Of a stretch of DNA of 36,545 nt, positions 1,383 to 6,689 are shown in pieces. The DNA is from an uncultured Eubacteriales bacterium (GTDB taxonomy: Bacteria; Bacillota; Clostridia; Peptostreptococcales; Anaerovoracaceae). The position numbers were made by a program, and so were the translations under genes. The DNA lies in NCBI GenBank assembly GCA_949289445.1, contig CASEOD010000104.1, positions 1 through 36,545 on the forward strand. Direction: 5' to 3'. The notes under the pieces are model-generated. The model had not been told where the DNA came from. It searched no databases and saw only the letters and a list, made by a program, of their open reading frames with translations. Position 1 is the stretch's first letter, and each line of letters begins with the position of its first letter.

Positions 1383-3647
1383 ATGCCAATTAAAGTACCT
1401 AATAATTTACCGGCAATAGAAACACTGACTGCAGAGAATGTATTTGTTATGACAGATACCAGAGCCATGACGCAGGATATTCGTCCTCTGCAGATTCTGA
1501 TTTTGAATCTGATGCCGACAAAGATCGACACGGAGACCCAGCTGACAAGACTTCTGGGAAACACACCGCTGCAGGTGGAGCTGGAGCTTTTGCAGACCAG
1601 TACCCACAAGGCTTCCAACACCTCAGAAGAGCACATGATCGCCTTTTATAAGACATTTGATCAGATCAAGCACAAGTATTATGACGGCATGATCATCACA
1701 GGGGCACCGGTGGAGCTTCTGGAGTTTGAAGAGGTGGAATACTGGGACGAGCTTTGCGAGATCATGGAATGGTCCAAGCGCCATGTCCACAGTACCTTTC
1801 ATATATGCTGGGGTGCGCAGGCGGGGCTTTACTATCATTATGGCATACAGAAGAGAAAACTGCCGAAAAAGCTTTCCGGTGTGTACAGACATACCCTTGA
1901 CTACAAGAGGGGGATGCTGTTCCGCGGATTTGACGACGAGTTTTATGTACCTCATTCCAGAAATACCACGGTAGACAGAGAAGACGTAGAGGCTGTGCCG
2001 GAACTGAAGATTATCTCTTCCTCAGAAGAGGCCGGGATCTACGCTATCAAGTCTGAAAACGACAGACAAATCTTTATCATGGGACATTCTGAGTACGATC
2101 CCGATACTCTACAGAAGGAGTATGAAAGAGATAAAAAAGCGGGAATCAATCCTGATATACCGTGCAACTATTTCCCTGATGATGACGACAGCCGGGAGCC
2201 TGTGGTAAGGTGGAGATCCTGTGCCAACCTTTTGTACAGCAACTGGCTCAACTACTTCGTTTATCAGACTACCCAGTATGATATCAGCCAGATTCGCGAC
2301 GATTCTCTGGCCGACATTTTTCGCAAGAAAGTGGACTGCAAGGCGGCCAAGTTCGGCGGCACATCTCTGGCCGATGCGGAGCACTTTAAGAAATGTGCAG
2401 CCATCATCGCTGAAGATCCCGCAAGAAAGTATATTGTGGTTTCTGCTCCGGGCAAACGTTCTGACACTGATGAGAAGGTGACTGATCTGCTCATCGCCTG
2501 CGCCGGCGCAAAAGCCGGGGCGGCGGAAGAGATTCTGTCCAAGATCCAGTCCCGGTACAAGGTTCTGGTCAGAGGGCTGGGGGTAAAGATGGATGTTGAT
2601 GCGGAATTTGCTGAGATCAGAAAGGCACTGGGAGATGAAACCCGCAGAGACTATATTATCAGCCGCGGAGAATATCTCAATGCGAAGATTCTGGCAGCTT
2701 TTACCGGTTATGATTTCATTGATGCCCAGGGCAGTATTTTCCTGGACAGTCAGGGAAAGTATGATGAAGAAACCACCAGAAACCATCTGGGAAAGGTCAT
2801 GAAGAACAGTGGCGGTGCTGTGATCCCGGGATTTTACGGAACCATGCCTGACGGTTCCATCAGAACCTTCAGCAGGGGCGGTTCTGATATTACGGGTGCC
2901 ATTGTGGCAGCTGTTGCAGGGGCGGACATTTATGAGAACTGGACCGACGTATCGGGACTTCTGATGGCTGATCCGAGAATTGTGGATAATCCGCTGACAG
3001 TGTCTGTTATTACGTACAAAGAACTGAGGGAACTCTCTTACATGGGGGCTGCGGTAATGCACGAAGATACCATTTTTCCTGTGGTGAAGCTGGAGATTCC
3101 TATTAACATCAGAAACACCAACAGACCTGAGGATAACGGAACGCTGATCGTAAAGAATGCGGACTACTATCCATCCAACCTGTCTGTTTCAGGGATTTCA
3201 GGAAAAACAGGCTATACCACGATTCTGGTGGAGAGGGACAGGATGAATGAGCAGCCTCAGCTTCGCGCCGAGATCCTGGATATTTTTGCGGAAAGAGGCA
3301 TTGCGGTGAAAAATATTCTGTCAGGTATCGACTCGCTGAACATTATCGTTCACGAATCTGATGTGAAGGACTGCGAAGCAGAGCTGCAGGAGGAAATCTG
3401 GGCAAAAGTTCCGTCGGGCAATATTACCGTCACCAGGGATGTGGCAATGATTGCCGTAGTGGGACGAGAACTGGGCACTTCCCCGGCCATTGCTGTGAGA
3501 GTTCTCAGCGCTCTTGCAAAACGCGGCATCAACGTAAAGCTCATCGACCACGGCGCGCAGAAGATCAGTCTGATGGCAGGAGTGGATGGTGCGGATTACG
3601 TTACAGCTGTGCAGGCCATCTATACAGAATTTGCAAAGGTGGAGTAA
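1383..3647 (+). CDS. Fused homoserine O-acyltransferase (MetA) / aspartate kinase
   Basis: A single 754-residue open frame contains two complete enzymes. Residues 1 to about 305 are MetA (HTS family): catalytic Cys142 in HICWGAQA, His235 and Glu237 in GHSEYDP. Position 111 is Glu in [10 protein letters not shown]; in studied MetA proteins Glu here goes with acetyl-CoA use and Gly with succinyl-CoA, so homoserine O-acetyltransferase is predicted. Residues about 317-754 are aspartate kinase: KFGGTS at 323-328, [11 protein letters not shown] at 496-506, then two ACT-type regulatory repeats (about 606-670 and 685-750). The chain thus joins the first step of the aspartate family to the first committed methionine step, while aspartate-semialdehyde dehydrogenase and homoserine dehydrogenase, which act between them, are not in the window. 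AGGAGG lies 6-11 nt before the ATG. No stop or frame break separates the halves. Confidence 0.93.
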
Positions 3648-4728: not shown

Positions 4729-5669
4729 TATTAAATACAGGAAACCGAACAGATATACCCGCTTTTTACAGCAAGTGGTTTTACCGTCGCATCAGAGAGG
4801 GCTATGTCCTTGCCAGAAATCCATATAATCCTCAGCAGGTGACTCGCTATCTCCTGGATCCGGAGGTGGTGGACTGCATTGCTTTCTGTACCAAAAATCC
4901 TGCGCCTATGCTGTCACAGATGGAGCTTCTAAAGGATTTTCGCCAGTTCTGGTCAGTGACCATTACTCCTTACGGCAGAGACATTGAACCTTATGTGCCG
5001 TCTTCGGAAACGGTAATAGAGTCTTTTCGCCGGCTTTCCGGCCTTGTAGGCATAAACTGTGTGAGCTGGCGGTATGATCCTGTTTTTATTTCTGAAAAGT
5101 ACACGGTGGATTTTCATCTGCAGGCATTTGAGAAGATGGCAGAGGCTTTGAAGGGATATACAGAACAGTGCGTCATCAGCTTTATCGACCTTTATGACAA
5201 GACAAAGCGGAACTTTCCGGAGGCAAGAACGGTCAGAAAGGAAGAACGGATGGTTCTTGGAAAGGCTTTTGCAGAAATAGCCGCCCGCTGCGGTATGAGA
5301 CTGACTCCCTGCGGGGAAGGGGATGAGCTTGAACCGGCAGGCGCCGACTGCAGCGGCTGTCAGTCAGCAGAGGTGCTGGAGCGGGCGATGGGTCTTCCCA
5401 TTGATCCGCCGGCTTCTTCTAAAACAAGAGAGGGATGCAGCTGCATACTGGGGAGTGATATCGGCGCTTATAACACCTGCGGACACGGATGTCTGTACTG
5501 CTATGCCAATTACGACAGAGAAACGGTGGAATACAATATGAGAGAGCATGACCCTTTTTCTCCTTTTCTCATCGGAGATTTTATGGATGGGGACATCATC
5601 AAATCAGCTGAACAGGAAAGCTGGATTCGATGGCAGCTTTCTATCGACGATCTGCAGGGAATACAGTAG
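4725..5669 (+). CDS. DUF1848 domain protein
   Basis: 314 residues. The fold signature of DUF1848 is visible: FYSKWFYRRIREGYVLARNP near the N-terminus, then VDCIAFCTKNPAPML, WSVTITPYGRDIEP and a C-terminal cysteine cluster GAYNTCGHGCLYCYANYD (about 259-276), whose CxxxC and CxxC spacing resembles an Fe-S or radical-SAM-like binding site. More cysteines occur in CGEGDELEPAGADCSGC. The enzymatic role of the family is not known to me. The start overlaps the upstream nucleoid-associated gene by four bases, so both products are likely made in fixed ratio. Confidence 0.8.
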   Translation: MILNTGNRTDIPAFYSKWFYRRIREGYVLARNPYNPQQVTRYLLDPEVVDCIAFCTKNPAPMLSQMELLKDFRQFWSVTITPYGRDIEPYVPSSETVIESFRRLSGLVGINCVSWRYDPVFISEKYTVDFHLQAFEKMAEALKGYTEQCVISFIDLYDKTKRNFPEARTVRKEERMVLGKAFAEIAARCGMRLTPCGEGDELEPAGADCSGCQSAEVLERAMGLPIDPPASSKTREGCSCILGSDIGAYNTCGHGCLYCYANYDRETVEYNMREHDPFSPFLIGDFMDGDIIKSAEQESWIRWQLSIDDLQGIQ

Positions 5670-5723
5670 CACAGCTGCCGTACGGAACAGGAACGGCCGA
5701 CTCACAGAAAACGACACAAAGTA

Positions 5724-5753
5724 AAGCACCGATGAATAAGGAAATCGGTGCTT
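5724..5753. terminator. Intrinsic terminator, possibly bidirectional
   Basis: AAGCACCGAT (5724-5733) pairs perfectly with ATCGGTGCTT (5744-5753), loop of 10 nt. Plus-strand T run follows (CTTTTGGAGTTTT); the minus side reads CTTTACTTTG. It can end the DUF1848 operon and also the minus-strand RNA proposed at 5822-6048. Confidence 0.65.
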
Positions 5754-5821
5754 TTGGAGTTTTGTGTATTAAATTGGGATATTAAAATTTCAATGGTATC
5801 TATATCAAATGTAACTATATA

Positions 5822-6048
5822 GAGTGATAACCAATGATTACGGCCGCCTTTCCGCTTATCAGAATCTCTGTTATCTACCCTGCTGACAGTAGGTTACCAG
5901 GCGGGTCTTTCCCCTTGCCTGTCAGTAATTACTTGTTGAATTTCTGTCCGTGTAGATTAGATTCTGAAAGCAGAAAGTCGCGCCATCGGGGAGTCTCCCG
6001 GTCCTAAACAGCGTCTCAACATGACTTTCGCTTCCTTTCTGAATATTC
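5822..6048 (-). ncRNA. Candidate structured non-coding RNA, family not identified
   Basis: This gene-free stretch holds nested long-range pairing that no ORF explains. Read on the minus strand: a hairpin ATTCaGAAAG...GAAAGTC (6044-6023) with GACTTTCtgCTTTCaGAAT (5979-5959), capped by CGGGagactcCCCG; then a second domain closed by CAGAATCT (5964-5957) with AGATTCTG (5867-5860), inside it CTGACAG/CTGTCAG (5925-5919 and 5889-5883), which competes at its inner end with a hairpin AGGC..GGG-GAAAGA-CCC-GCCT; finally GATAA/TTATC (5858-5854 and 5828-5824). The minus strand is favoured because the loops become purine-rich (GAAAG repeated several times), as in folded RNAs, and a sigmaA-like promoter lies upstream on that strand. 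Size and isolation fit a stand-alone RNA. The raiA motif RNA, common in Clostridia, is one hypothesis; I cannot confirm it. Confidence 0.5.
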
Positions 6049-6109
6049 CATAAGACTGATACACTATAACTTCTATCTGAATGATAATGTATTTTCTTTT
6101 GTTGTACTA

Positions 6110-6138
6110 ATAATAATACAATTCACTACAAAAAGCAA
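6110..6138 (-). promoter_or_regulatory. Putative promoter for the minus-strand RNA
   Basis: Minus strand TTGCTT (6138-6133), 17-nt spacer, TATTAT (6115-6110), giving a start near 6103, about 55 nt before the paired region. The -35 box is a weak match. Confidence 0.4.
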
Positions 6139-6173
6139 GTCTTTTTTGAAATTTTAGAAAGTTTTTTGTGCGC

Positions 6174-6202
6174 TTTAATTTTCTGCATTTGTGTGCTAGA
6201 AT
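6174..6202 (+). promoter_or_regulatory. Promoter of the ferredoxin/AEC/Mrp operon
   Basis: TTTAAT (6174-6179), 17-nt spacer, TAGAAT (6197-6202) with an extended TG at 6194-6195 (TGCTAGAAT). Confidence 0.55.
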
Positions 6203-6251
6203 ATAGCTTGTGAATATGACAAAAAACATAAGGCAAGGAGGAAGGTTTGCC

Positions 6252-6689
6252 ATGCAGATTTTAGACAGAGTCAAAGGCTGTAACGGCTGTGAGGCATGTA
6301 TTGTAGGATGTAAATATGCCTGCATCAAAATGACCCGAGATGAGAAAGGCCATAAGCGGCCGGTGATCAACGAGGACGGATGTCAGAAATGCAACAACTG
6401 TATTCTGTACTGTCCTGTGTTCAATCCTGTAGAACTTCCTGAGTTTACTGAGTTTTACGAAGATAAGGAAGAGTATTATGAACGCGATATGGCAAAAGTG
6501 TATAGAGAAACCATGCGCAAGATCAAGTCGGGAACTACCACAGAGTTTGTGGGAACTCTCTGTCAGATTGCGGCTCTGAAATCACTGATGGGAGATAAGC
6601 TGAGTCATGATCTCCGTCTTTTTCCTCTATATTGCGACCCTGAAAATCCGAAACGGCCGGAGTGTGCAGGCTGTCCTTTTTACAAATGA
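6252..6689 (+). CDS. Small 2x[4Fe-4S] ferredoxin-like protein with FrhB-like tail
   Basis: 145 residues. Two four-cysteine clusters are clear: CNGCEACIVGCKYAC and CQKCNNCILYCPV, which should bind two [4Fe-4S] centres for low-potential electron transfer. The second half contains FVGTLCQIAALKSLMGD and a final CAGCPFYK; the first resembles the GTPCQ-A-L segment of F420-hydrogenase beta (FrhB) proteins, but the protein stops before the rest of that family. It may be a minimal or truncated FrhB-like protein. The start is ATG at 6252 because AAGGAGG (6235-6241) lies 10 nt before it; the longer reading from 6210 would put that site inside the gene. It is 19 nt from the AEC gene and probably co-transcribed. 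Confidence 0.75.
   Translation: MQILDRVKGCNGCEACIVGCKYACIKMTRDEKGHKRPVINEDGCQKCNNCILYCPVFNPVELPEFTEFYEDKEEYYERDMAKVYRETMRKIKSGTTTEFVGTLCQIAALKSLMGDKLSHDLRLFPLYCDPENPKRPECAGCPFYK

What the first reader, a model, noticed from the sequence alone, without database searches (positions are those of the whole stretch)
5822..6048. Large structured RNA candidate in a gene-free region
At least four helices nest over 225 bases, and two are mutually exclusive: the segment around 5957-5968 can pair either with 5856-5867 or with 6035-6044. Such switching is typical of regulatory or catalytic RNAs. A promoter and a terminator bracket it on the minus strand, with no coding gene following, so it should act as a free RNA. 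Loops contain repeated GAAAG.
Basis: partly seen in the sequence, partly recalled or inferred. Interest (0 to 1): 0.75.

Follow-up and report, generated by a model that had tools for sequence, protein, structure and literature searches.

The report
Switchable RNA encoding a tiny peptide
A stand-alone RNA gene of gut bacteria can fold in two competing ways that hide or free the start of a 21-to-30-residue peptide it seems to encode; comparison of relatives suggests that both folds and the peptide's core are kept by evolution, and no RNA family we compared it with matches.

Summary
The structure is real. It lies on the minus strand and looks like a separate transcription unit (promoter 6110-6138, terminator hairpin 5726-5751). 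It is not raiA or 6S, and no Rfam 15 family reaches threshold. 24 of 349 genomes of its family carry it, in four genera (named members: Emergencia, Hornefia, Aminicella, Candidatus Avanaerovorax). The proposed competing helix is weak (-2.6 kcal/mol). The supported competitor pairs B with the ribosome-binding site: 6023-6036 with 5965-5980 (-16.4). Across 19 representatives, true partners of both helices pair better than swapped partners (0 of 20,000 permutations as good for each); six controls show nothing. The core starts at residue 7 in 17 of 19, and the long stem begins 17-20 nt after the core's first base in 19 of 19, where a ribosome decoding it should meet the stem. Best reading: a self-gated peptide mRNA, perhaps also acting in trans. 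Expression, translation, pausing and target are untested.

The parts
6110..6138 (-). sigma-A-type promoter, -35 TTGCTT (6133-6138), 17-nt spacer, -10 TATTAT (6110-6115); transcription start expected near 6103 (inferred)
   Evidence: loose TTGNNN-16/17-TANNNT site upstream of the SD in 19 of 19 representatives
6059..6093 (-). 5' leader hairpin AAUACAUUAU/AUAGUGUAU
   Evidence: kept in 4 Emergencia members, its main 9 pairs without two-sided changes; not seen by eye in the other loci
6023..6036 (-). segment A: SD site (AGGAAG) and spacer; 5' arm of the SD-hiding helix A x B
   Evidence: cognate duplex mean -15.6 against -12.8 permuted, 0 of 20,000
5957..6022 (-). small ORF, MLRRCLGPGDSPMARLSAFRI-stop
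   Evidence: SD-preceded, GPGD codons vary almost only at third positions
5993..6004 (-). Gly-Pro-Gly-Asp codons (GGN CCN GGN GAY)
   Evidence: G 18/S 1, P 18/S 1, G 19, D 19 of 19 representatives
5951..5987 (-). segment B: pairs with A (part 5965-5980) or with C (all)
5839..5879 (-). segment C: 3' arm of the long stem B x C, -40.9 kcal/mol
   Evidence: cognate mean -39.2 against -26.1 permuted, 0 of 20,000
5885..5948 (-). P2 domain enclosed by B x C: helix GNCAG/CUGNC, small hairpin AGUAAUUACU, hairpin AGG..GGGGAAAGACCC.CCU
   Evidence: one of the five pairs of GNCAG/CUGNC has two-sided changes (UA, AU, CG) in four sequences
5798..5831 (-). 3' tail with GUUAUC and UUGAUAUAGAU words that recur in many homologs; not tested statistically
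   Evidence: by eye and by a simple pattern
5726..5751 (-). intrinsic terminator hairpin GCACCGAU...AUCGGUGC followed by UUUACUUU
   Evidence: in homologs a script found a terminator-like hairpin in 14 of 19, three of them more than 500 nt away
6252..6689 (+). neighbour: 145-residue 4Fe-4S ferredoxin-like protein, divergent; not part of the RNA but its most frequent neighbour

Best explanation
A self-gated peptide mRNA, about 385 nt long in the window. SHOWN BY COMPARISON: a promoter-like site, an SD site, a 21-30 codon ORF with a Gly-Pro-Gly-Asp core, and a segment B that can pair either with the SD region (A) or with a downstream segment (C); both pairings show compensatory change. INFERRED: while the RNA is being made, B first folds back on A and hides the ribosome-binding site. 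Once C is transcribed, the far stronger B x C stem takes B away and frees the site, so translation waits for a finished, folded transcript. A ribosome then makes about eight peptide bonds and reaches the base of a roughly 30-pair stem just as it decodes Gly-Pro-Gly-Asp, so it should pause there. When it does run through, B x C is opened and A x B can snap shut behind it, limiting the rounds of translation. The product is the small GPGD peptide, made late and in small amounts. Its target is unknown. The structured remainder (P2 domain, 3' tail words) may have a second role as RNA.
For: CODING: over 171 pairs of 19 representatives the four GPGD codons differ at positions 1/2/3 by 18/0/90, 18/0/108, 0/0/96 and 0/0/34. 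21 of 32 loci examined had an in-frame GPGD ORF; the other 11 were one SPGD variant (L016) and ten weak or false hits. SWITCH: A x B -15.6 against -12.8 permuted (z -5.5, 0 of 20,000); B x C -39.2 against -26.1 (z -10.4, 0 of 20,000); five control segment pairs and a reversed-B control gave z from -1.1 to +1.2. Within the Hornefia-type genus alone (9 sequences): 2 and 0 of 20,000. GEOMETRY: the stem's first pair lies 17-20 nt after the first base of the GPGD codons in 19 of 19, median 18; GPGD begins at residue 7 in 17 of 19 and 10 in 2 (start codons chosen by the script). GATING: predicted SD openness rises from 0.41 (nascent) to 0.53 (full length), against 0.43 with a shuffled 3' part; full exceeds nascent in 14 of 19 and the shuffled control in 13 of 19. 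UNIT: promoter-like site in 19 of 19, terminator-like hairpin in 14 of 19.
Against: The openness change is modest and absent or reversed in 5 of 19. Within Emergencia alone the A x B test is not significant (1966 of 20,000; six sequences), although B x C is (17 of 20,000). The true partner is the single best one in only 4 of 19 rows for A x B and 10 of 19 for B x C. RNAalifold on a plain MAFFT alignment of the 19 B-to-C stretches predicts no pairs; I ascribe this to misregister, unproven. The distribution is patchy: 24 of 349 family genomes (one further hit discarded), and two Emergencia-type loci keep both flanking genes without the RNA, so it is dispensable. No expression data were available. 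The permutation test allows for composition but not fully for shared ancestry.
Confidence: 0.55

Rival explanations
1. A translation-sensing trans-acting RNA. The ORF is a built-in ribosome sensor: pausing at Gly-Pro-Gly-Asp against the stem sets which fold the rest of the RNA takes, and the structured body and 3' tail act on other RNAs or proteins. The peptide is a by-product.
For: Fixed geometry of start, GPGD and stem base; no further gene seen in the window's transcript; recurrent 3' tail words; the peptide beyond GPGD is poorly conserved.
Against: No target was sought; GPGD is not, to my recollection, a tested arrest motif; conserved amino acids can equally mean a functional peptide.
Confidence: 0.25
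2. A dual-function small RNA in the manner of S. aureus RNAIII: a functional peptide plus base-pairing regulation in trans, with the switch timing the peptide.
For: Stand-alone structured RNA of several hundred nt with a 21-30 codon ORF and recurrent tail words.
Against: No base-pairing target is known or was sought; the tail words were not tested statistically.
Confidence: 0.2
3. A type I toxin mRNA whose translation is held back by metastable structures, as in AapA or hok.
For: A metastable SD-hiding hairpin inside a short-ORF mRNA is the arrangement proposed for aapA3 (PMC6733600, abstract and working-model section read). Two of 19 homologs have a strong antisense promoter match (L015 11 of 12, L023 10 of 12).
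Against: Peptides have no hydrophobic stretch (best 15-residue Kyte-Doolittle mean at most 0.73 in 24 of 24); the best antisense promoter score does not exceed the mean of shuffles in 14 of 19.
Confidence: 0.05
4. A purely non-coding structured RNA; the ORF is chance.
For: No convincing family match for 10 of 10 peptides: Pfam one match at E 0.031 to a human uORF family in one member, NCBIfam one at E 0.22 in one member, both read as chance.
Against: Third-position variation with invariant Gly and Asp; the frame is open in 19 of 19 over 21 codons against 4 and 11 for the other frames (openness in frame is partly by choice of ORF).
Confidence: 0.04
5. A cis-acting regulator of the neighbouring ferredoxin-like gene.
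For: That gene is the most frequent neighbour, adjacent or one gene away, in three genera.
Against: It is divergently transcribed except in L035; 32 of 45 loci with the gene show no confident RNA match, although five of these hold little sequence upstream of it; one genus has other neighbours.
Confidence: 0.04

Closest known systems
AapA/IsoA type I toxin mRNA of Helicobacter pylori (PMC6733600; abstract and working-model section read)
   Same: Short-ORF mRNA in which transient hairpins hide the SD site during transcription, one of them with an arm inside the ORF; supported there by covariation and probing.
   Different: There the full-length mRNA is inert and must be trimmed, an antisense RNA exists and the peptide is a toxin. 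Here the full-length fold is predicted to free the site, no conserved antisense promoter was seen, and the peptide is not hydrophobic.
RNAIII of Staphylococcus aureus (recalled; paper listings seen only)
   Same: Stand-alone structured RNA of several hundred nt with a short ORF.
   Different: RNAIII's targets and peptide function are known (recalled), these are not; no direct comparison with RNAIII was made beyond the Rfam scans.
raiA/ModT RNA (RF03072; listing of PMC11706538)
   Same: Structured RNA of Clostridia, present in the same genome.
   Different: Different locus, and the raiA model does not match here.
Arrest-peptide and erm-type leader ORFs (recalled; listings)
   Same: Short ORF whose translation competes with alternative RNA helices.
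   Different: No regulated gene follows the ORF in the window's transcript.

Membership tests
raiA RNA (RF03072) | match to the Rfam covariance model above its gathering score | tested here: not met
   no hit in window; the genome's raiA is at C44:40609-40772, 140.6 bits
6S RNA (RF00013) | match to the Rfam model at this locus | tested here: not met
   no hit in the window; 6S elsewhere in 7 of 8 genomes
any Rfam 15 family | match at or above the gathering score | tested here: not met
   window, none; 5650-6250 at E up to 10, three sub-threshold hits; 11 homologous loci, one sub-threshold cobalamin hit outside the RNA
type I toxin-antitoxin | hydrophobic membrane-active peptide | tested here: not met
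   no hydrophobic stretch in 24 of 24 peptides; activity not testable
type I toxin-antitoxin | antisense RNA antitoxin | tested here: inconclusive
   antisense promoter score above the shuffle mean in 5 of 19, strong in 2; transcripts not testable
dual-function RNA | translated conserved small ORF | tested here: inconclusive
   conservation met by codon pattern; translation itself not testable here
dual-function RNA | regulation in trans by base pairing | not tested
   no target search made
cis-regulatory leader / attenuator | regulated gene downstream on the same transcript | tested here: not met
   in the window: terminator hairpin and a convergent next gene; exception among homologs: L035 has the ferredoxin gene downstream on the same strand

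The most novel reading that the evidence does not exclude
A new class of RNA that uses a parked ribosome as a structural part: Gly-Pro-Gly-Asp plus a stem placed at the mRNA entry point halts the ribosome after eight or nine codons, and the ribosome's presence or release sets the fold of a free RNA whose output is in trans, with no downstream gene.
Probability: 0.2. Interest if true: 0.85.

Novelty: new variant of a known kind. Interest (0 to 1): 0.6.

Why it matters
It gives a defined, testable example of an RNA in which translation start, peptide sequence and alternative folding appear to have co-evolved: two mutually exclusive helices each show compensatory change, which is uncommon for a metastable structure (my judgement). 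It occurs in gut bacteria, some of them with named strains (Emergencia timonensis, Hornefia butyriciproducens, Aminicella lysinilytica), so its translation, pausing and targets can be measured directly. If the pause at Gly-Pro-Gly-Asp is real, it offers a compact natural system for ribosome pausing against RNA structure.

Tried and rejected
raiA, 6S and every other Rfam family: rejected. Type I toxin: disfavoured. Phage or plasmid origin: no match for one Emergencia-type query in phages, one Hornefia-type query in plasmids, or one strict pattern in viral contigs; these are thin tests. RNAalifold on 19 stretches in a plain alignment gave no pairs; on a four-sequence alignment it gave 42 pairs, 4 with two-sided changes. 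A long-range helix AUAUCGUAA/UUACGAUAU in the 3' part of several Hornefia-type members was seen by eye and not tested. B x C was permuted four times: with a C window that cut the helix, 284 of 20,000, with windows that hold the helix, 0 of 20,000 each. A programmed frameshift product was considered: the other two frames are open over the first 21 codons in only 4 and 11 of 19, so it is not supported. Literature: eight searches listed nothing that by title or beginning of abstract describes this RNA. Only PMC6733600 was opened (outline with abstract, and one section); the rest were seen as listings.

Full report
WHAT WAS CHECKED. The region 5822-6048 was read and folded on both strands. Both fold better than shuffled sequence (z -3.0 and -2.98; 0 and 2 of 200 shuffles as good), so folding alone does not say which strand is used. 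No Rfam family reached its gathering score in the whole window, and 5650-6250 at E up to 10 gave three sub-threshold hits. 6S RNA was found at other places in 7 of 8 related genomes; the window's own genome, 85% complete, gave none.

RELATIVES. A DNA search of 149 related genomes found the minus-strand sequence in four same-genus genomes besides the window; three further weak hits in other genera were not followed. From the five an alignment and a covariance model R1 were made. R1 matched 6 of 13 genomes of the genus and, at E <= 0.1, 31 of 296 of the family. A second model R2 from 21 sequences matched 25 of 349 family genomes at E <= 0.001. One of these (G487, L046) is by eye the start of a protein gene, which leaves 24. 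In 393 genomes of the order it matched 21, G487 again included, all in the same family. In 391 of the class it matched the window's genome, one known member, and two weak hits that read by eye as protein-coding. Contigs of equal length in named records tie the handles to Emergencia timonensis SN18, Hornefia butyriciproducens, Aminicella lysinilytica and Candidatus Avanaerovorax; the first three are placed in Anaerovoracaceae, Peptostreptococcales. The fourth genus remains unnamed. Each genome has one match at E <= 0.001.

THE HIDDEN ORF. Inside the RNA lies an SD site followed by a short ORF, in the window MLRRCLGPGDSPMARLSAFRI (5957-6022). Of 32 loci examined, 21 had an in-frame GPGD ORF; the 11 without were L016, which has SPGD, and ten weak or false hits. 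The 24 peptides are 21-30 residues long. Among 19 representatives the core is Gly 18/Ser 1, Pro 18/Ser 1, Gly 19, Asp 19, and pairwise differences fall almost only on third positions: 90, 108, 96 and 34 of 171, against at most 18 at first and 0 at second positions. This is the signature of selection on the peptide. In 10 peptides scanned, Pfam gave one match (E 0.031, a human uORF family, one member) and NCBIfam one (E 0.22, one member); I read both as chance. None of 24 has a hydrophobic stretch.

THE SWITCH. Call A the SD region, B the stretch after the GPGD codons, C a stretch about 110-190 nt after the first GPGD base. In the window A x B is 6023-6036 with 5965-5980 (-16.4 kcal/mol) and B x C is 5951-5987 with 5839-5879 (-40.9 kcal/mol). 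They share B and exclude each other. To test selection, each segment was paired with its own partner and with the partners of other species. A x B: -15.6 against -12.8, 0 of 20,000 permutations as good. B x C: -39.2 against -26.1, 0 of 20,000. Six controls (B with two other regions, A with two, P2 with C, and reversed B with C) gave z from -1.1 to +1.2. Within the Hornefia-type genus alone the counts were 2 and 0 of 20,000; within Emergencia 1966 (not significant) and 17. The true partner was the single best in 4 of 19 rows for A x B and 10 of 19 for B x C. A first run with a C window that cut the helix gave 284 of 20,000 for B x C. Against this stands that RNAalifold on a plain 19-sequence alignment found no pairs, which I ascribe to misregister. 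In the enclosed P2 domain one of the five pairs of GNCAG/CUGNC shows two-sided change in four sequences.

GEOMETRY. The stem B x C begins 17-20 nt after the first base of the GPGD codons in 19 of 19 (median 18), that is about six nt after the Asp codon; stop codons fall 45-57 nt after that base in 17 of 19 and at 72 in two. GPGD begins at residue 7 in 17 of 19 and at residue 10 in two. From general knowledge of ribosome footprints (recalled), a ribosome decoding these codons has its leading edge at the base of the stem. This is why a pause there is proposed; it has not been measured.

MECHANISM. Thermodynamics favours B x C in the finished RNA, so a conserved A x B makes most sense as a transient form during transcription. 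Predicted openness of the SD site is 0.41 in the nascent form, 0.53 in the full form and 0.43 with a shuffled 3' part; full exceeds nascent in 14 of 19 and the shuffled form in 13 of 19. The effect is modest. The closest published arrangement I read is the aapA3 mRNA of H. pylori, where transient hairpins hide the site during transcription (PMC6733600, abstract and working-model section). There the final form is inert, here it is predicted open.

SURROUNDINGS. A ferredoxin-like gene of about 145 residues lies nearby in all six Emergencia-type members, in five of the eight Hornefia-type members examined (L019, L020, L021, L022, L035), and one gene further away in the four Avanaerovorax-type members; it is divergent from the RNA in all of these but L035. 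L024, L025 and L031 have other neighbours, and so has the fourth genus. Of 45 loci fetched with that gene or a relative of it (one a 43-residue match in Bibersteinia), 13 have the RNA; two matches at E 0.22 and 0.74 were not counted, and five loci hold little sequence on the side where the RNA would lie. Two Emergencia-type loci (L049, L050) keep both the ferredoxin gene (85% identity) and the DUF1848 gene (75-76%) in the window's arrangement, with some 340-380 bases between them and no RNA match. The RNA therefore behaves as a separate, dispensable unit. No match was found in phages (one query) or plasmids (one query).

JUDGEMENT. The structure, the ORF and both alternative helices are supported by comparison. 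Expression, translation, pausing and any target are untested. It is an RNA family absent from Rfam 15 by the searches made, of a known broad kind (short-ORF structured RNA), with an unusual, jointly conserved switch and pause-like geometry.

Noticed in passing
window 1383-3647 (+): One ORF of 754 residues joins a homoserine O-acyltransferase (MetA-type, residues 1-301) to an aspartate kinase (residues 320-752), two enzymes of related pathways in a single protein.
   Followed up: partly
window 6252-6689 (+) and homologs in alignment A8: A conserved small ferredoxin-like protein whose C-terminal half carries an invariant GTLCQIA motif in 11 of 11 sequences; many of its loci lack the RNA.
   Followed up: partly
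L049 and L050, between the ferredoxin gene and DUF1848: Where the RNA would be, these loci have an AT-rich stretch with repeated GTGCATATTTTT-like words, seen by eye.
   Followed up: no
L019, L025, L035 (by pattern) and L020, L022, L024, L031 (by eye), 3' part of the RNA: Two copies of a UUGAUAUAGAU-like word about 22 nt apart, and a GUUAUCGUAA-like word after the long stem in several genera; role unknown.
   Followed up: no
window 6102-6121: An imperfect inverted repeat TTGTACTAATAATAATACAA overlaps the RNA's -10 box; not seen in full in the four relatives, possibly chance.
   Followed up: no
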